DNA of 40,255 bases from a virus. Of the stretch, positions 1-40,255 are shown piece after piece. The notes below the pieces were generated by a model. That model had not been told where the DNA came from and searched no databases. It saw nothing but the letters and a program-made list of their open reading frames with translations. The stretch is from IMG/VR virus record IMGVR_UViG_3300027861_000069, positions 1 through 40,255 of that record; one strand, written 5' to 3'. Position 1 is the stretch's first letter. Each line of letters opens with the position of its first letter. The translations under genes and the position numbers were made by a program.

Positions 1-137
1 ATCAAAGCTTAGCGAGCAAAGAGGCTTAGTTGAAAACTATGCAGAGTCAGAGCGCAATTATCGTATTGCCTTGGCAAAAAAAATGACTGAGCTAAAATTG
101 AAAGGTGAGAAAGTAACAATAATATCAGACTTATCAA
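1..137. repeat. Terminal redundancy, left copy (circular assembly overlap)
   Basis: The first 137 bases match the last 137 bases (40119-40255) with a single difference (A at 11, G at 40129). The overlap lies inside a coding sequence that reads through both ends in the same frame, which indicates one circular or circularly permuted genome of 40,118 bp rather than a functional terminal repeat. The mismatch changes Ser to Gly, so it looks like population variation or a sequencing or assembly difference. Confidence 0.93.
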
Positions 138-292
138 GGGGAGACCCTGTAGTCGCAGGCCTGAAAAGAGACAGGGACATTGCAGATGGTGTGCTTGATG
201 CTTGTAAGTCATCTATACGATCAATGCAAGCTACTATGTCAGGGATCCAGAGCCTAATTTCAACCAAGAAAGAAGAGATGAAGTTAGTTTAA
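2..292 (+). CDS. Conserved recombination-module protein, C-terminal part (start at 40066)
   Basis: This is the 3' part of a gene that begins with ATG at 40066 and crosses the circle junction; joined, it encodes about 114 residues. The protein is helical and charged, with a central stretch around KVTIISDLSRGD and a C-terminal region rich in Ser, Met and Gln. I know similar proteins as uncharacterised neighbours of ERF and Gp157 genes in phages, and that is its context here: ERF upstream (39433-40062), Gp157-like downstream at 305. A role in recombination is inferred from position only. No catalytic motif is visible. Confidence 0.85.
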   Translation, partial: SKLSEQRGLVENYAESERNYRIALAKKMTELKLKGEKVTIISDLSRGDPVVAGLKRDRDIADGVLDACKSSIRSMQATMSGIQSLISTKKEEMKLV

Positions 293-304
293 AAGGAGAT
301 AGCA

Positions 305-781
305 ATGAAAAGCCTATACGAGATTGAAAAAGAAATACAAATCATACTGGATATTGAGCCAGATGAAAACGGAGAGATTAACATTGACTATGATGCTCTT
401 GATCAGCTTGAAATGGATAGGGTCAAGAAGGTGGAGAACCTTATCAAGTATTATAAGGACACCTTAAGGAGAGTTGAGGCATTCAAGGCAGAAGAAAAAG
501 AGCTTGCTGCAAGACGTAAGGTGCTGGAGAATAAGAGAGAATCCTTGAAGACATACCTGGACATCATACACAAGGGAGAAAAAGCAGAGTACGGAGTGCA
601 TAAGATAAGTTATAGGAAAAGTGAAGCTGTATCCGATGGGCCTGCTAATATTCTACCTGATTACTTTCTTTCATTTTCAGATCCTAAGCCGAAAAAAGCA
701 GAGCTTAAAAAGCTCTTGAAGTCTGGATTATGGGTGCCTGAATTTGAGCTTGTAGAATCTAAAACCATTCAGATAAAATAA
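305..781 (+). CDS. Siphovirus Gp157-like protein
   Basis: The 158-residue product begins MKSLYEIEKEI and has a long charged helix at about residues 35-95, expected to form a coiled coil. It ends in a small beta-rich part containing KISYRKSEAV and a Lys-rich segment near residue 130. This order and length match the Gp157 family, usually found beside ERF or RecT-type annealing genes and first linked to phage resistance in Streptococcus. It follows the previous gene by 12 bases with an AAAGGAGAT ribosome site, so it belongs to the same operon. Biochemical function is not established for the family; a recombination role is inferred. Confidence 0.85.
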   Translation: MKSLYEIEKEIQIILDIEPDENGEINIDYDALDQLEMDRVKKVENLIKYYKDTLRRVEAFKAEEKELAARRKVLENKRESLKTYLDIIHKGEKAEYGVHKISYRKSEAVSDGPANILPDYFLSFSDPKPKKAELKKLLKSGLWVPEFELVESKTIQIK

Positions 782-12822: not shown

Positions 12823-13365
12823 ATGATTTTTGAACAATGGAAGCCCATTAACAATTTTGAATATCAATACGAAATATCCAACCTTGGTGAAGTAAAATCT
12901 CTCAATAGATTTTGTAAAAGTCGCTGGAACACTAAAAAACCTGTACGCGGTAAAATTATGAAAAATCAAACAACTAAACAAGGTTATAAGTATATTATTC
13001 TCTGTAAAAATGGGCGTAAAACTAAATTTTTTATTCATAGGCTTGTTGCTGCTGCCTTTATTCCAAATCCTGACAACCTCCCTCAAGTTAATCATATTGA
13101 TGGTATTAAATTTCATAACTTTATTGAAAATCTTGAATGGGTCACATCTCAACAAAATTGCCATCATGCCCTTGAAAACAAATTGTATGAGACGGCAAAA
13201 GGAGAAAAAGCAGGCCACGCAAAGCTGACAGAAGATATTGTTAGAGATATTAGAAAACAAGCAGCTAAAGGGATATACCATAAAGTTCTTGCAAAACAAT
13301 ACGGTGTTGGCCGAAAAGCTATTACTAAAATAGTTAATTTTCAGAGATGGAAACATATAGTTTGA
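12823..13365 (+). CDS. Free-standing HNH homing endonuclease
   Basis: The 180-residue protein has three parts: a NUMOD4-like DNA-binding segment at residues 3-45 (FEYQYEISNLGEVKSLNR), an HNH_3 core at 70-108 (IHRLVAAAFIP, then QVNHIDGIKFHN and NLEWVT) and a C-terminal helix-turn-helix at 131-178 (HAKLTEDIVRDIR, VLAKQYGVGRKAI). It is encoded against the direction of all neighbouring tail genes and has its own AAAGGAGGTAATAAA ribosome site. This is a typical mobile nuclease that invades intergenic spaces of phage genomes. No flanking repeats or intron are visible. Confidence 0.93.
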   Translation: MIFEQWKPINNFEYQYEISNLGEVKSLNRFCKSRWNTKKPVRGKIMKNQTTKQGYKYIILCKNGRKTKFFIHRLVAAAFIPNPDNLPQVNHIDGIKFHNFIENLEWVTSQQNCHHALENKLYETAKGEKAGHAKLTEDIVRDIRKQAAKGIYHKVLAKQYGVGRKAITKIVNFQRWKHIV

Positions 13366-17324: not shown

Positions 17325-18263
17325 CTATGCTGTTACTGCTGTTGCAGAGCTGATATTCCAAAGCCTTGTAGCTGCTCTTGGATGATAAAGGGCCATGCCC
17401 ACCAGCCACTCAACCAGAGTACGCCAGATCACGCCTGAGTCAGTTTTTCCAAGGTCCTCAACTTCCATCACGCCATTCTGGATACCCTCAAGCATTCCGG
17501 ACCTAAAAGAAACAACATAAACGCTTGTTGCGTCAGACCCTGCATCACCAGCAGTCTCAGTCAGTGGAATGATATCAGTATTGGTGTTGTCCTTTCCAGC
17601 ATCAAGAATTGGAAGCTCACCATATTTTGTAACCTGCCTTCCCCAGTCATCCTGTGTGAAATTGATAAGACCACCAATAGTGGAAGTTCTTGACGCCTGA
17701 GTAAGCAACCTACGCATTTTCTTATTCATTATGATGTGACTTGGCTCCTCTGTCTGATCAATAGCCTCATCTAGCTTTGCAAGGGTCAAAGCCCCAACAG
17801 AGTCTGTGTCATTTGTGGTCACTGCAATTTTCTGGTCATTATCAAGCCGTCTCTGGAGTCCATCAAACTCTTTAGGGTCTGATGTTGAGTCACCCTTGAT
17901 AATGTTCTTTGCGATCTTAAGGGATAGAGCCTTGACTTTCATTGCCTCGTGCTTTCCTCTTACACCCTCACCAAACATCTTGATAAGTGCCCTATCAACA
18001 TCAAGGGTACCACCAGCGATTTTAAGTGGGTCGTGCTGAGGATTGATAACACCGGCGCTTGATGTATATTCCTCATTGATGCCACGGAATGCCACACCTG
18101 GTAGAGTTGCTTCCTGATCATAATCAACCCCTGATCCCATGATGTTTTCAAAGACCATAGCGTTTACCACCTCATTTGATTTGGCAAACAGCTCAATGAT
18201 AGTTCCTCTTTTTGTGTTGAGACCTACGTCTTTTGCATATTCTAACAGTCCTATTGCTGCCAT
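17325..18263 (-). CDS. Major capsid protein (GP7/Bbp17-like, HK97 fold expected)
   Basis: The 312-residue protein starts MAAIGLLEYAKDVGLNTKRG and includes a short N-arm, SGVDYDQEATLPGVAFRGIN, DPLKIAGGTLDVDRALIKMF and a SHIIMNKKMRRLLTQASR segment (HxxMxxxxRR-type P-domain pattern). The C-terminus WRTLVEWLVGMALYHPRAAT is typical of capsid proteins of this family. It is flanked by scaffold and cement genes. The ATG has a clear GAGGAG ribosome site but sits close behind a strong terminator (18291-18341), so its transcription is unusual. Confidence 0.92.
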   Translation of the reverse strand: MAAIGLLEYAKDVGLNTKRGTIIELFAKSNEVVNAMVFENIMGSGVDYDQEATLPGVAFRGINEEYTSSAGVINPQHDPLKIAGGTLDVDRALIKMFGEGVRGKHEAMKVKALSLKIAKNIIKGDSTSDPKEFDGLQRRLDNDQKIAVTTNDTDSVGALTLAKLDEAIDQTEEPSHIIMNKKMRRLLTQASRTSTIGGLINFTQDDWGRQVTKYGELPILDAGKDNTNTDIIPLTETAGDAGSDATSVYVVSFRSGMLEGIQNGVMEVEDLGKTDSGVIWRTLVEWLVGMALYHPRAATRLWNISSATAVTA

Positions 18264-18290: not shown

Positions 18291-18341
18291 TAAAATAAAA
18301 AAGCCGAGCCTAAAGGTTTGTTGACCCTTCAGGTCCGGCTT
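18291..18341 (-). terminator. Strong intrinsic terminator between scaffold and capsid genes
   Basis: On the minus strand AAGCCGGACCTGAAGG pairs with its complement around a 9-base loop (18301-18341), about 16 pairs with one mismatch and two G-U pairs, followed by TTTTATTTTA (18300-18291). It lies 58 bases after the scaffold stop and only 28 bases before the capsid start codon. No promoter fits in the remaining space, so capsid mRNA must read through, be processed here, or start upstream within the leader. Confidence 0.85.
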
Positions 18342-33869: not shown

Positions 33870-34659
33870 GATAATTTCCTTCTATTATTTTTAAAAAATT
33901 AGAGTTTTTTACAAGCCAATCCAGTTTTAAAACAAAAGGTTTCCTTCCTTCTTGATTAACCCTTCCCATAAGAAAGTCGCTCTCCCTAATCCAATTAAAA
34001 AGCTTTACCCACCAGTCTATATTTTGCCTTTCTTCAGACCCGTTCCACCTGGCCCTTAAGTTTGATTGCCTTTCTTGACCCCATTCTCTTGGCTGAGGTA
34101 AATCAGGCATTTTTTCCGCCCAAAGGTTTACTATTTTCTGTTGAGGACATTTAGGTATTTTATTAGGTTGGATCACTATCTCTTCAAACAAGTCTTGCTG
34201 CTCTGGTGATTCGCTAGAATTACATATAATACTATTCTCTTCTTTCTTTTCTTTCTTGTTTGTGTCACTTGGTTGTTCCTTGCCTGTCACTTGCCTGTCA
34301 CCTTTGTTGTCACTTTTTTTATTCCCGTCTTGGTAAGTATCCCAATTTATTATTGAAATAAGGGTGTAATGGGTGTTCCTTTCGGTGTTCAAATTTTGCA
34401 TGTTTTCTAATTTTAATATTCGCTTCCAAACTGTTGATGGCGGCATTTTAAGAGCTTTACCTGCTGAAATCCTACCAAATATGAATTGTCCTGGATTAAT
34501 AAAAACCTCTGTTTCTGAACGTCCAGTTTTAACAGTAACCCATGCTTCTTTGTAATTTGCCTTCAGTAGACACCATAGCCAAACTTTTAAAAGCCCATCA
34601 TTGGCCCATGCTCTGCTCTCAAGTATTTTCCTATGAATTTTTATATAGCCTTCACTCAT
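33862..34659 (-). CDS. Replication initiator (phage O/DnaD-like)
   Basis: I start at ATG 34657-34659 (MSEGYIKIHRKILESRAWAN, 265 residues), the usual start of phage helix-turn-helix initiators; the longer frame has no site. Residues 1-110 look like a winged helix (LKVWLWCLLKANYKEAW, INPGQFIFGRIS, MPPSTVWKRILKLE). A Lys/Glu-rich linker follows, then a C-terminal helicase-loader-like region (WNGSEERQNIDWWVKLFNWI). Such proteins melt the origin and load DnaB, which is encoded next. The linker Lys repeats resemble origin-containing O genes, but iterons are not evident. A terminator-like structure sits just upstream. Confidence 0.8.
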   Translation of the reverse strand: MSEGYIKIHRKILESRAWANDGLLKVWLWCLLKANYKEAWVTVKTGRSETEVFINPGQFIFGRISAGKALKMPPSTVWKRILKLENMQNLNTERNTHYTLISIINWDTYQDGNKKSDNKGDRQVTGKEQPSDTNKKEKKEENSIICNSSESPEQQDLFEEIVIQPNKIPKCPQQKIVNLWAEKMPDLPQPREWGQERQSNLRARWNGSEERQNIDWWVKLFNWIRESDFLMGRVNQEGRKPFVLKLDWLVKNSNFLKIIEGNYHE

Positions 34660-34777
34660 TATAAGCCCATAAAAAAAAGAGCTTGGAAGTCTCAATCACC
34701 AGTTGGTTAGGTAGGTGATTCTGGCCCTTACGGGAGACAGCTTCCAAGCTCTTTGTGTATGTAATTTGTGTTTTCAT
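34652..34777 (-). CDS. Possible 41-residue leader peptide over the initiator attenuator
   Basis: ATG 34775-34777 opens a frame (MKTQITYTKSLEAVSRKG to LWAYNE) that runs through the whole terminator structure and overlaps the initiator start by eight bases. Upstream is AAAGGTTAGGGC, a modest ribosome site. If translated, ribosomes would melt the hairpin and couple to initiator translation. It could be a chance ORF; the evidence is its placement. Confidence 0.35.
   Translation of the reverse strand: MKTQITYTKSLEAVSRKGQNHLPNQLVIETSKLFFLWAYNE
34671..34754 (-). terminator. Branched intrinsic terminator/attenuator before replication initiator
   Basis: AAAGAGCTTGGAAG pairs with CTTCCAAGCTCTTT (34741-34754 with 34676-34689), 14 perfect pairs, followed by eight U residues (34678-34671). 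Inside are GTCTC/GAGAC, a CCC-GTAA-GGG tetraloop hairpin (34725-34734) and AATCACC/GGTGATT (34694-34720), giving a three-way junction. The U-tract ends 12 bases before the initiator ATG, so this is an attenuator in the initiator leader or a terminator of the upstream genes. Confidence 0.85.
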
Positions 34778-34807
34778 GCCCTAACCTTTATTTATTTGAG
34801 AGTGTCA

Positions 34808-34836
34808 ATACTAGCCTATTTAGGGCTGTGTGTCAA
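34808..34836 (-). promoter_or_regulatory. Promoter for initiator leader
   Basis: TTGACA (34836-34831), 17 bases, TAGTAT (34813-34808) on the minus strand. Transcription would start near 34801, giving a leader of about 140 bases that includes the leader ORF and attenuator. Confidence 0.6.
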
Positions 34837-35254
34837 TGGGTTTTGTTTGCATTTCTTTTTTCTGTTCTGCTGCCCATTTAAACCCTATTTCAATTAAAAA
34901 GTCTAAGTCTTGACCATAAAACCATTTAGTCCTATATCTAAACCAAGAAACACGCTCACCTGGATAACATGTAGGGGTTGAAACCTGTATAAGAAATCCA
35001 AGTTTTTCACTATCGATAAGACTATCAATAATGCATTCAATGTCAGGGTTTCCATTTTGGTATTCTTCTCTTATATGTTCTGGTAAATCATTACTAAAGC
35101 ATCGTGATATAACTTCAAAGTCTGTTTCTTCAAGAAACTCTCTCAGCTTATCAGGTATATTAATATTAGTTCTTGATAAACATCCTGCTAATAATATGAT
35201 ACTATCTATCCTTACTAACTCTTCATTAAACTTGTTAAACATATATCGATTCAT
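34820..35254 (-). CDS. Unknown protein ending in the shared KPIDTQP tail
   Basis: A 144-residue protein with helical N-terminal segments (EELVRIDSIILLAGCLSRTN, DKLREFLEETDFEVISRC) and an aromatic C-terminal half (RVSWFRYRTKWFYGQDLDFL). The final KPIDTQP is also the end of the neighbouring 35269 product. An AAAGGAGAATAGT ribosome site, repeated before several genes here, precedes the ATG. No function recognised. Confidence 0.65.
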   Translation of the reverse strand: MNRYMFNKFNEELVRIDSIILLAGCLSRTNINIPDKLREFLEETDFEVISRCFSNDLPEHIREEYQNGNPDIECIIDSLIDSEKLGFLIQVSTPTCYPGERVSWFRYRTKWFYGQDLDFLIEIGFKWAAEQKKEMQTKPIDTQP

Positions 35255-37742: not shown

Positions 37743-37771
37743 ACTATATTACTATGGGGATATTATGTCAA
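37743..37771 (-). promoter_or_regulatory. Leftward early promoter
   Basis: TTGACA (37771-37766), 17 bases, TATAGT (37748-37743) on the minus strand, 27 bases before the Cro-like start codon. It is the apparent head of the leftward operon. Confidence 0.8.
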
Positions 37772-37792
37772 TAGTAAAAATATAATTACTAA
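37749..37792. promoter_or_regulatory. Candidate operator (inverted repeat plus extra half-site)
   Basis: TTACTAT (37749-37755) and ATAGTAA (37771-37777) are perfect inverted copies separated by 15 bases, and a third near copy, TTACTAA, lies at 37786-37792. They overlap the leftward promoter spacer and -35 and end 16 bases before the rightward -35 box. This is where a Cro-like dimer would be expected to bind. Confidence 0.5.
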
Positions 37793-37807
37793 AATAATAA
37801 AAACATG

Positions 37808-37835
37808 TTGACACACTTTCTTGATGATGTATAAT
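37808..37835 (+). promoter_or_regulatory. Rightward early promoter
   Basis: TTGACA (37808-37813), 16 bases, TATAAT (37830-37835) on the plus strand, a full consensus at both boxes. Transcription would start near 37842 with a leader of about 105 bases before the first gene. Confidence 0.85.
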
Positions 37836-37946
37836 GGGAGCCAAGTTAAACACAAACCCTGCTCAACCTTACGACAGCCACACAGACCTACACAGATAAG
37901 AGTCTAAGCGCACCGGAGGGAGGGCAGGGATTAAAAAGGAGAGGAT

Positions 37947-38123
37947 ATGGCAGACAAAAAAAAGAGCATGCGTATAGAATGCGCATGGTGTAAAAAGCTA
38001 ATAGGGTTTAAAGATGGGCAGGGCAAGACTGAGACGAGCCATGGTATATGCCCAAAATGCTATGCCAAAGAGATGGCAGAAATAGGTCTATATAAAAAGG
38101 GGGATAAGATATGCCAAAATTAA
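37947..38123 (+). CDS. 58-residue zinc-ribbon protein, first gene of rightward operon
   Basis: The frame starts MADKKKSMRIECAWCKKLIG behind AAAGGAGAGGAT. It has C12-x2-C15 and, after a polar stretch, SHGICPKCY with C35-x2-C38: a zinc ribbon of a kind common in phages and bacteria (CxWC...SHGIC). It overlaps the next gene by 13 bases. Likely a small nucleic-acid or protein-binding factor. Confidence 0.75.
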   Translation: MADKKKSMRIECAWCKKLIGFKDGQGKTETSHGICPKCYAKEMAEIGLYKKGDKICQN

Positions 38124-38412: not shown

Positions 38413-38658
38413 ATGGGAAAGTTTGCAAAGCTCTATGAAGACGATGAATTGGGTCAGATCCTGGTCAAGAGTGATATGGATCATAATGGTAACCCAGAAA
38501 TAAGATTTTATTGCATCCCTGATGGTTTAGGTGTTTGTTCTGTTGCTTTGACCCATGACGACACAGACGAGGGGTGGAAAGCTATGGAGAAAGCATTTGA
38601 ATCGATAGATAAAAAAGATGCAATTAAAGTTGTAAAAAATATTACTAACAGCTTTTAA
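38413..38658 (+). CDS. Small unknown early protein
   Basis: An 81-residue alpha/beta protein (GQILVKSDMDHNGNPEIRFY, GVCSVALTHDDTDEGWKAME, FESIDKKDAIKVVKNI). It starts one base after the preceding stop. The sequence suggests a small beta-sheet with a C-terminal helix, as in some phage host-takeover proteins, but no family is recognised. Confidence 0.65.
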   Translation: MGKFAKLYEDDELGQILVKSDMDHNGNPEIRFYCIPDGLGVCSVALTHDDTDEGWKAMEKAFESIDKKDAIKVVKNITNSF

Positions 38659-38681: not shown

Positions 38682-38897
38682 TTGGCTAAAAGAAGAGTTG
38701 ATTTTTATAAATACGTTAGAGTAGAGGGGCAGTCTTTTTCTGATAAGGTCCTTGCTGGGGAGGGGACATTCCATGAATTCGGGTTTGATTATGAAGATTT
38801 CGAAACTGGACCTGGAAATTTTTCAATAGCAATCATTGAGCTTGATGATGGTACAATTAAAAGCCTCCCAGTAGAAATGATAGCTTTTAAAGATTGA
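38682..38897 (+). CDS. Small unknown early protein with TTG start
   Basis: The frame begins with TTG 38682 after AAGGAGATATAGT (strong site), encoding 71 residues: AKRRVDFYKYVRVEGQSFSD, FDYEDFETGPGNFSIAIIEL and a final VEMIAFKD. It looks like a small beta barrel of the type that binds protein partners. The next promoter overlaps its stop codon (TTGACA at 38894). Function unknown. Confidence 0.65.
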   Translation: MAKRRVDFYKYVRVEGQSFSDKVLAGEGTFHEFGFDYEDFETGPGNFSIAIIELDDGTIKSLPVEMIAFKD

Positions 38898-38922
38898 CAC
38901 CAACGCACCAAAACGTTATAAA
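38894..38922 (+). promoter_or_regulatory. Internal rightward promoter feeding the recombination genes
   Basis: TTGACA (38894-38899), 17 bases, TATAAA (38917-38922) on the plus strand. The predicted start (about 38929-38931) coincides with the first base of the paired leader described next. Confidence 0.75.
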
Positions 38923-38930
38923 TAATCTTT

Positions 38931-39009
38931 ACATAGTCGCCAATACAATTTAACTTACTCAAAGGCTCTCCGGTATAGTTTGGCGACTATGTACACCGGA
39001 GGGCCTTTT
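38931..39009 (+). promoter_or_regulatory. Two-state leader RNA (candidate cis-regulatory switch)
   Basis: Stem A: ACATAGTCGCCAA (38931-38943) pairs perfectly with TTGGCGACTATGT (38980-38992). Stem B: AAAGGCTCTCCGGT (38961-38974) pairs with ACCGGAGGGCCTTT (38995-39008), 14 pairs with one G-U. The strands interleave (1-2-1-2) and the two-base linker after stem A is too short to span 13 pairs, so the stems should exclude each other. Stem B hides GGAGGG (38998-39003), a Shine-Dalgarno for ATG 39010, and ends just before the main ribosome site. Confidence 0.7.
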
Positions 39010-39027
39010 ATGTTTAGGGAGGGAGTT

Positions 39028-39252
39028 ATGCTAAAAAAAGTTGATGCTGAATTAGGGGTATATGTGATGGTAGAATGCCCACAATGTCAAGAGCCTTTTA
39101 ACCTGCTTGATATCAAAAATCTTACTGAAGAAGATTATATCTATAAAGAGCTATTGCCTGACGACGAACCATGGGGCAAAGAACAATGGGGTGAGATAGT
39201 AGAATGCCCTAATTGCGGATACAAAATGCTTATTGATAGTGTTGTGTGGTAA
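39028..39252 (+). CDS. Zinc-ribbon protein behind the switch leader
   Basis: I choose ATG 39028 (MLKKVDAELGVYVMVECPQC, 74 residues) because of AGGGAGGGAG just upstream; an in-frame ATG at 39010 with GGAGGG six bases before it is an alternative start whose ribosome site lies in stem B. The protein has VECPQCQEPF and VECPNCGYKM, two C-x2-C pairs of a zinc ribbon, with an acidic helix between. It follows its own promoter and leader and is the first gene of the recombination sub-operon. Function unknown. Confidence 0.75.
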   Translation: MLKKVDAELGVYVMVECPQCQEPFNLLDIKNLTEEDYIYKELLPDDEPWGKEQWGEIVECPNCGYKMLIDSVVW

Positions 39253-39281: not shown

Positions 39282-39449
39282 ATGGATCAACGAAAGGAAT
39301 CTCACCAGTATTATCACGACCACCCAACATGTGAGTGCGGACAAATATTAATAAGCCCTGATGAGATTGCAACGGGGTTATGTTGCAGGTGTATGATTTA
39401 CAAATGGGAAGATTATGAGGAGGTTGTGAACAATGAAGATACTCAATAA
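39282..39449 (+). CDS. Small zinc-knuckle protein
   Basis: I choose ATG 39282 (MDQRKESHQYYHDHPTCECG, 55 residues) after AAGGAGATAGCT; an upstream in-frame start lacks a site. CECG and later GLCCRCM form a small four-Cys metal site. It overlaps the ERF gene by 17 bases, so the two are probably co-translated. Function unknown. Confidence 0.65.
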   Translation: MDQRKESHQYYHDHPTCECGQILISPDEIATGLCCRCMIYKWEDYEEVVNNEDTQ

Positions 39450-40062
39450 AATACAAAAAGATCTTAATGTTCCCAAAAATCAATATAATTCTTTCGGCAA
39501 GTTTAAATATAGGTCATGTGAGGACATACTAGCATCAGTTAAACCCCTCTTAGGTGATGCCACGTTGACCCTATCAGATGATATAATTCAAGTAGGTGAA
39601 AGGATTTATGTTAAGGCAACGGCAACTATTAAAGCCGGCGAAGAGTCTGAGTCTGTGTCCGCATATGCGAGGGAAGATGAAAATAAAAAAGGTATGGACC
39701 TTGCACAGCTTACTGGTAGTTGTTCCTCTTATGCAAGGAAATATGCCCTTAACGGCCTGTTTCTTTTAGATGATGTAAAAGATGCAGATACAAGGGACAA
39801 TAGAAACACCACACAAGCCCCAAAACAAGGCACCACTGCCACAAAACAAAAAGAGGCACCTCTCACACAGCCTGAGCCAGCAAAGACAGAGGAGGATATA
39901 GAAAAGAACCTCATGATAAGAAAGATGAGAGACGCAAAGAAAACAAATCCTGATTTATTCGGCATCGTATGGGTAAATCTTAAACTAGGAGACAAAATTC
40001 CTAAAGACTTAAGTCTCGATCAATGCAAACAGTTTATGAAAGAATTTGTTAAGAGGTCATAA
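39433..40062 (+). CDS. erf: ERF-family single-strand annealing protein
   Basis: The 209-residue protein starts LNKIQKDLNVPKNQYNSFGK, then FKYRSCEDILASVKPLLGD, and later MDLAQLTGSCSSYARKYALN and GLFLLDD: the signature of the ERF superfamily (phage P22 Erf relatives), which anneals complementary single strands in recombination and genome circularisation. The C-terminal half is a Thr/Gln/Pro/Lys-rich linker and a small helical domain (KMRDAKKTNPDLFGIVWVNL). It is followed after three bases by the gene that crosses the junction, and then by Gp157. Confidence 0.95.
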   Translation: MKILNKIQKDLNVPKNQYNSFGKFKYRSCEDILASVKPLLGDATLTLSDDIIQVGERIYVKATATIKAGEESESVSAYAREDENKKGMDLAQLTGSCSSYARKYALNGLFLLDDVKDADTRDNRNTTQAPKQGTTATKQKEAPLTQPEPAKTEEDIEKNLMIRKMRDAKKTNPDLFGIVWVNLKLGDKIPKDLSLDQCKQFMKEFVKRS

Positions 40063-40065
40063 GAA

Positions 40066-40255
40066 ATGGATATACCACAACTTGAAAAAGAGTTAATGGA
40101 AAAGGCTGGATGGCTGGTATCAAAGCTTGGCGAGCAAAGAGGCTTAGTTGAAAACTATGCAGAGTCAGAGCGCAATTATCGTATTGCCTTGGCAAAAAAA
40201 ATGACTGAGCTAAAATTGAAAGGTGAGAAAGTAACAATAATATCAGACTTATCAA
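40066..40255 (+). CDS. Conserved recombination-module protein, N-terminal part (continues at 2)
   Basis: ATG 40066 opens MDIPQLEKELMEKAGWLVSK, and the frame runs to the window end; its continuation is the partial gene at 2-292. Joined across the circle, the protein has about 114 residues. It starts three bases after the ERF stop, with GGTCATAAGAA upstream. This copy has Gly where the left copy has Ser at the polymorphic base. Confidence 0.85.
   Translation, partial: MDIPQLEKELMEKAGWLVSKLGEQRGLVENYAESERNYRIALAKKMTELKLKGEKVTIISDLS
40119..40255. repeat. Terminal redundancy, right copy
   Basis: Matches 1-137 with one mismatch (G at 40129, A at 11). See the left copy: it marks a closed circle of 40,118 bp. 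Confidence 0.93.

What the first reader, a model, noticed from the sequence alone, without database searches (positions are those of the whole stretch)
38894..39028. Promoter plus two competing long stems before a zinc-ribbon gene: candidate RNA switch
Seen: a TTGACA-N17-TATAAA promoter whose predicted start coincides with the first base of a 13-pair perfect stem (38931-38943 with 38980-38992). A second 14-pair stem (38961-38974 with 38995-39008) interleaves with it and contains GGAGGG, a ribosome site for ATG 39010; the main start is 39028. A two-base connection makes both stems together unlikely. Inference: the leader toggles between a form with the site exposed and one with it hidden, responding to a ligand, a protein or transcription speed, and so controls the recombination sub-operon (zinc ribbon, zinc knuckle, ERF, Gp157).
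Basis: partly seen in the sequence, partly recalled or inferred. Interest (0 to 1): 0.82.

Follow-up and report, generated by a model that had tools for sequence, protein, structure and literature searches.

The report
Phage leader with self-masking terminator loop
Just before its DNA-recombination genes, this phage has a short transcript leader that ends in a transcription terminator-like hairpin whose loop is perfectly complementary to the leader's own first 14 bases; this looks like a built-in on/off decision for the genes behind it, but no related copies were found and nothing has been tested at the bench.

Summary
The sequence features are real. Stem S1 is 14 perfect pairs (38930-38943/38980-38993), one more than reported. 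Stem S2 is 13 Watson-Crick pairs plus one G-T (38961-38974/38995-39008). They interleave. No comparable pair arose in 3000 local shuffles or 12 whole-window simulations, and one weaker pair exists in 1.56 Mb of other fetched loci. A TTGACA-17-TATAAA promoter places the start at S1.

The interpretation needs changing. S2 plus TTTTATGTTT scores as an intrinsic terminator, one of four in the window, and S1's 3' arm fills its 20-nt apical loop. Among 247 terminator-like hairpins checked, none has a comparable upstream complement (14 nt; next best 10). The ribosome site of the main start (39016-39025) lies outside both stems and is not more open in the S1 state; only the in-frame start at 39010 could toggle. 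The best reading is a transcription attenuator: S1 forms first and keeps the terminator open; masking the leader's 5' end would allow termination.

The trigger is unknown. A stand-alone ~80-nt RNA or a plain terminator with a 5' stabilising stem remain rivals.

The parts
38894..38922 (+). sigma-70-like promoter TTGACA-N17-TATAAA; its -35 overlaps the stop codon of the upstream gene
   Evidence: sequence; 11/12 match, one of 6 such sites in the window
38931..38931 (+). predicted transcription start (38929-38931; A38931 preferred as a purine)
   Evidence: inferred from promoter spacing
38930..38943 (+). S1 5' arm (TACATAGTCGCCAA), proposed antiterminator/sensor strand at the 5' end of the transcript
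   Evidence: 14/14 complementary to 38980-38993
38961..38974 (+). S2 5' arm (AAAGGCTCTCCGGT), 5' half of the proposed terminator
   Evidence: 13 Watson-Crick pairs and one G-U with 38995-39008
38980..38993 (+). S1 3' arm, lying inside the 20-nt apical region of S2 (38975-38994)
38995..39008 (+). S2 3' arm (ACCGGAGGGCCTTT); holds GGAGGG, a possible ribosome site for ATG 39010
39006..39015 (+). T-rich tail TTTTATGTTT after the G+C-rich part of S2; predicted release region
   Evidence: terminator score d=10.2, hairpin -23.9 kcal/mol
39010..39012 (+). alternative in-frame start codon (adds 6 residues)
   Evidence: sequence
39016..39025 (+). ribosome site AGGGAGGGAG of the main start, outside both stems
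   Evidence: sequence; accessibility
39028..39252 (+). 74-aa zinc-ribbon protein (two CPxC pairs), first gene behind the leader
   Evidence: weak zinc-ribbon matches, none over a curated cut-off; not matched by the Mu Com model
39433..40062 (+). ERF single-strand annealing protein
   Evidence: Pfam PF04404 E=9.3e-38
305..781 (+). Gp157 gene, continuing the operon across the circular end of the record
   Evidence: Pfam PF05565 E=4e-24; the record's ends overlap

Best explanation
The leader is most likely a cis-acting transcription attenuator in front of the phage's recombination genes. Shown by sequence: S2 followed by TTTTATGTTT has the anatomy of an intrinsic terminator placed about 20 bases before the start codon, and the leader's first 14 bases are a perfect complement of that terminator's loop. 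Shown by calculation: S1 is complete before the second half of S2 is made and stays the lower-energy fold until about base 39004 has left the polymerase; by then the active site is roughly 10-14 bases further on, past most of the T-run. Inferred: by default S1 captures the loop, delays the terminator hairpin and lets polymerase read through. Anything that occupies or removes the 5' arm (a phage or host protein, an RNA, degradation of the 5' end), or that slows polymerase at the T-run, shifts the leader to S2 and causes termination. The same decision would apply to transcripts from the local promoter and to those arriving from the strong early promoter at 37808. The physiological trigger is not identified.
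For: Only four hairpins in the window, both strands, pass the terminator score (d>5, dG<-10) against a mean of 0.6 in 24 simulated windows; two of the four are below -20 kcal/mol against 0.08 expected. The 14-nt complement 5' of the loop is a clear outlier among 247 terminator-like hairpins in about 1.6 Mb (next best 10; shuffles give about 0.1 cases at 10) and beats 500 of 500 shuffles of its own upstream sequence. S1-versus-S2 energies by exposed 3' end: S1 -22.4 vs S2 -7.2 at 38995, -22.5 vs -18.1 at 39002, crossing over at 39005, then -23.9 vs -28.6 at 39012. The same order holds for a transcript starting at 38700. Masking the S1 5' arm lets S2 form from about 38999. A nearly identical stem sequence (AAAAGGCTCTCCGG...CCGGAGAGCCTTT) recurs in an otherwise unrelated viral contig, consistent with a common terminator-type stem.
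Against: The T-run is short (TTTT then ATGTTT) and the score d=10.2 is modest; comparable scores occur now and then in simulated sequence. No homologous leader exists in the collections reached, so no covariation supports either stem. Upstream regions of 29 ERF loci, none with a homologous leader, show a terminator in only two, which are related to each other. The nested refolding calculation ignores pseudoknotted intermediates, so the claim that S1 outlasts the decision point is uncertain. No trigger is known. The promoter's -10 lacks the conserved last T.
Confidence: 0.45

Rival explanations
1. A stand-alone small RNA gene: promoter 38894, start 38931, terminator 39005-39012, giving an RNA of about 80 nt whose 30-base unpaired 5' region acts on other RNAs; read-through into the zinc-ribbon gene is incidental.
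For: Own promoter and own terminator about 80 bases apart; in the S2 fold the first 30 bases are unpaired. A phage fetched here (G010) carries two related terminator hairpins with complementary upstream bases, which could be such small RNAs.
Against: The 5' region's best partner in the window is the RNA's own loop; every other match to CATAGTCGCCAA has two or three mismatches and the number of hits equals chance. The terminator sits about 20 bases before a start codon with a good ribosome site, which a free-standing RNA does not need.
Confidence: 0.17
2. An ordinary intergenic terminator for the upstream early genes, with S1 serving only to protect the 5' end of transcripts from the local promoter or having no function.
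For: S2 lies between two gene groups, and S1 begins at the predicted start, as in known 5'-end stabilising stems (own knowledge).
Against: The promoter for the downstream genes lies before the terminator, so its own transcripts must pass it. S1 is exactly complementary to the terminator loop, unlikely if the two parts were independent. S2 is the more stable fold and disrupts S1 in the finished transcript.
Confidence: 0.15
3. Translational switch: S2 hides, and S1 exposes, a ribosome site.
For: GGAGGG 38998-39003 is unpaired 0.62-0.74 in the S1 state and 0.00 in the S2 state, and ATG 39010 is in frame with the main start.
Against: The main ribosome site 39016-39025 lies outside both stems and is no more open in the S1 state (0.35-0.46 vs 0.57-0.60).
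Confidence: 0.1
4. A DNA-level element: the S1 arms are two inverted protein sites (operator pair or recombination site) over the start region of the promoter.
For: 14-bp perfect inverted repeat with 36 bp between the arms, starting at +1.
Against: No further copy of the arm near the divergent early promoters (37743-37835) or elsewhere beyond chance; does not explain S2 or its T-run; no integrase or transposase was recognised near it.
Confidence: 0.1

Closest known systems
Terminator/antiterminator attenuators (trp, pyrimidine and riboswitch leaders; B. subtilis rplJL, PMC4538822)
   Same: Two mutually exclusive folds, an intrinsic terminator just before the gene, an earlier-formed antiterminator.
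   Different: In textbook cases the antiterminator uses an arm of the terminator (own knowledge). Here it uses the terminator's loop, so the two helices interleave like a pseudoknot. No effector domain is visible.
Lambdoid phage early terminators with N or put-RNA antitermination
   Same: A terminator between the first early genes and the recombination genes, as with tL1 before the P22/lambda recombination genes (own knowledge).
   Different: Those systems alter polymerase through nut or put RNA far upstream; no N-like protein or nut/put element was identified here, and no dedicated model was run for either.
P4 CI RNA / P1 C4 RNA immunity leaders
   Same: Phage leader RNA with alternative pairings that decides premature termination (own knowledge).
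   Different: There a processed leader RNA acts in trans. Here only cis complementarity is shown; trans action is speculation.
Phage Mu Com - mom (PMC6483171)
   Same: A small zinc-binding phage protein and a structured leader; [quoted passage not shown]
   Different: The window's zinc ribbon does not match the Com family model, and no binding has been tested.

Membership tests
Intrinsic (Rho-independent) terminator | stable G+C-rich hairpin | tested here: met
   GGCTCTCCGGT...ACCGGAGGGCC, -23.9 kcal/mol; 52-nt z-score -5.65
Intrinsic (Rho-independent) terminator | T-rich tract directly after the hairpin | tested here: inconclusive
   TTTTATGTTTAGGGA, combined score d=10.2, positive but the weakest of the four in the window; the stricter built-in scan (loop 3-8, at least 5 T in 8 bases) does not list it
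Transcription attenuator | alternative fold that forms earlier and excludes the terminator | tested here: met
   S1 preferred until 39004 is exposed, by calculation only
Transcription attenuator | regulated termination in the leader | not testable with these tools
   needs in-vitro transcription or 3'-end mapping
Transcription attenuator | compensatory changes in homologous leaders | not testable with these tools
   no homologous leader found
Metabolite riboswitch | match to a known aptamer family | tested here: not met
   no Rfam match at gathering score; only microRNA and eukaryotic-virus models far below cut-off at E<=10
Mu Com-type translational activation | Com family zinc ribbon (PF10122) in the genome | tested here: not met
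   no match in the window at E<=10
Mu Com-type translational activation | ribosome site of the controlled gene hidden in the alternative stem | tested here: not met
   main site is outside both stems and not more open in the S1 state; met only for the alternative start 39010
Lambdoid N/put antitermination | nut or put RNA element and, for N, an arginine-rich activator | not tested
   no dedicated models run; no lambda-N family match among the plus-strand early proteins scanned in Pfam and PHROGs

The most novel reading that the evidence does not exclude
The terminated ~80-nt leader RNA, whose 5' arm is free and whose loop carries the complementary arm, pairs in trans with the 5' arm of new nascent leaders and makes them terminate: a phage operon that limits itself through its own aborted transcript, in the manner of P4 CI or C4 RNA but with a terminator-loop geometry. 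The minus-strand leader before the replication gene would be a second case.
Probability: 0.08. Interest if true: 0.7.

Novelty: new variant of a known kind. Interest (0 to 1): 0.42.

Why it matters
If true, a phage times its recombination genes with a very small switch in which the transcript's first bases block the loop of a terminator a few dozen bases later. That geometry needs no aptamer and could be looked for directly in other phages. It also offers a clean two-helix model for co-transcriptional competition between interleaved stems, a case that nested folding programs do not handle.

Tried and rejected
Exact DNA searches for the S1 3' arm (65 viral contigs), the S1 repeat with a variable gap (4 contigs) and the S2 repeat (1 contig): the S1 hits show none of the rest of the leader and look mostly like coding sequence; the S2 hit is an unrelated terminator-like stem. 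The zinc-ribbon gene and the gene at 38413 have no close relative in the viral collection; the only distant zinc-ribbon relatives are in Vibrio phages, and the best of these, Rostov 7, shows no interleaved stems. Relatives by large terminase (L106-L123), ERF (L067-L105) and replication protein (L151-L163) show no homologous leader. DNA-operator idea: no further copies of the arm. Com-type regulation: no family match. Riboswitch: no Rfam match. A first script for constrained folding used a hard constraint that removed unrelated pairs; its numbers are discarded and replaced.

Full report
WHAT IS THERE. The window is a 40,255-base virus record whose ends overlap by about 139 bases with a mismatch near the start, so it is effectively a circular genome. 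Most genes between 1,971 and 37,716 are on the minus strand. A short plus-strand early operon starts at the promoter TTGACA-16-TATAAT at 37808, runs through small genes, the leader in question, a zinc-ribbon gene (39028-39252), a small cysteine-rich gene, ERF (39433-40062) and, across the circular end, Gp157 (305-781).

S1 is 14 perfect pairs, 38930-38943 with 38980-38993. S2 is 13 Watson-Crick pairs plus one T-G, 38961-38974 with 38995-39008. S1's 3' arm lies between the two S2 arms, one base before the second. The promoter TTGACA-17-TATAAA (38894-38922) puts the start at about 38931.

IS IT CHANCE? No. Interleaved stems with both scores at least 9 did not occur in 3000 dinucleotide shuffles of 38894-39030. 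The 82-nt leader folds with z = -4.8; each stem alone folds with z of about -5.5.

WHAT THE STEMS ARE. S2 is followed by TTTTATGTTT. By a d'Aubenton-Carafa-type score, written here as a script from memory of the formula, it is one of only four terminator-like hairpins in the window (d = 10.2), where simulated windows give 0.6 on average. The stricter built-in scan does not list it, because its loop is longer than 8 bases and it has only four T in a row, so this is a fair but not a strong terminator. The S2 loop region (38975-38994) is largely S1's 3' arm (14 of 20 bases). A scan of 247 terminator-like hairpins in about 1.6 Mb of fetched sequence put this leader first by a wide margin: 14 complementary bases upstream against a next best of 10, with about 0.1 cases of 10 expected from shuffling.

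HOW IT WOULD WORK. Folding by exposed 3' end gives S1 a large lead while the transcript grows (-22.4 against -7.2 kcal/mol at 38995). The lead shrinks (-22.5 against -18.1 at 39002) and S2 takes over only when base 39005 is out (-28.6 against -23.9 by 39012). Because polymerase covers roughly the last 10-14 bases (general knowledge), the T-run has mostly been copied when S2 becomes favourable. So S1 should favour read-through, and masking its 5' arm should allow S2 to form earlier, from about 38999. This is calculation with nested structures only; a partial pseudoknot, S1 with the outer part of S2, cannot be excluded on simple geometric grounds and could speed up the exchange. Which state is the default in the cell, and what shifts it, is not known.

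WHAT IT DOES NOT DO. No Rfam family matches. The zinc ribbon does not match the Mu Com family, which would have been an attractive regulator because Com is a small zinc protein that binds a hairpin loop in an mRNA leader (PMC6483171).

COMPARATIVE EVIDENCE. None could be had for this leader. DNA and protein searches of phage, viral and genome collections found no homologous leader.

A POSSIBLE SECOND CASE. On the minus strand, before the replication initiator (start near 34659), a much stronger terminator (stem ending at 34679, eight T, -30.7 kcal/mol, d = 21.5) follows a TTGACA-17-TAGTAT-like promoter and overlaps a 41-codon reading frame. Seven bases upstream (GGTTAGG) match its 13-base apical loop; this is 4 in 500 by shuffling for that loop but 57 in 500 for the whole inner region, so it is suggestive only. 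Two related terminator hairpins in another fetched phage (L141:7837-7889; L140 minus strand 3670-3619) also have upstream complements of 8 and 6 bases that differ in parallel.

VERDICT. A real, non-random, unusual leader. The most likely reading is a transcription attenuator whose antiterminator captures the terminator's loop. It is a new variant of a known kind, with moderate interest because nothing comparative or experimental yet supports the function.

Noticed in passing
window 34671-34838, minus strand: Promoter-like sequence, 41-codon leader reading frame and a strong branched terminator (14-bp perfect outer stem, eight T) ending about 12 bases before the start codon of the replication-initiator gene; the upstream GGTTAGG complements its apical loop.
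   Followed up: partly
window 18303-18339, minus strand: Another good terminator (d=28.5), about 40 bases before the start of the gene at 17325-18263, which matches phage major capsid proteins.
   Followed up: no
window 37840-37960, plus strand: Leader of the first early gene is strongly structured (z=-4.07) and shares CACCGGAGGG (37911-37920) exactly with 38994-39003, the S2 3' arm region; no other exact copy in the window.
   Followed up: partly
L141:7837-7889 (+) and L140:3619-3670 (-), both phage record G010: Two related terminator hairpins (GGGTGTCGCTGTTTCGT core) in one phage, each with an upstream complement of its loop that differs in parallel between the copies and a possible start codon right after the T-run; no Rfam match. 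Possible small RNA or attenuator family.
   Followed up: partly
L112:3494-3563: int-alpA RNA (RF02996), 38.8 bits.
   Followed up: no
window 12823-13365, plus strand: An isolated plus-strand reading frame of 180 aa amid minus-strand tail genes that resembles an HNH-type endonuclease by eye; not checked against a library.
   Followed up: no
window 1-139 and about 40117-40255: The record's ends overlap nearly exactly, with a mismatch near the start, so the genome is circular or circularly permuted and the last gene continues at base 1.
   Followed up: partly
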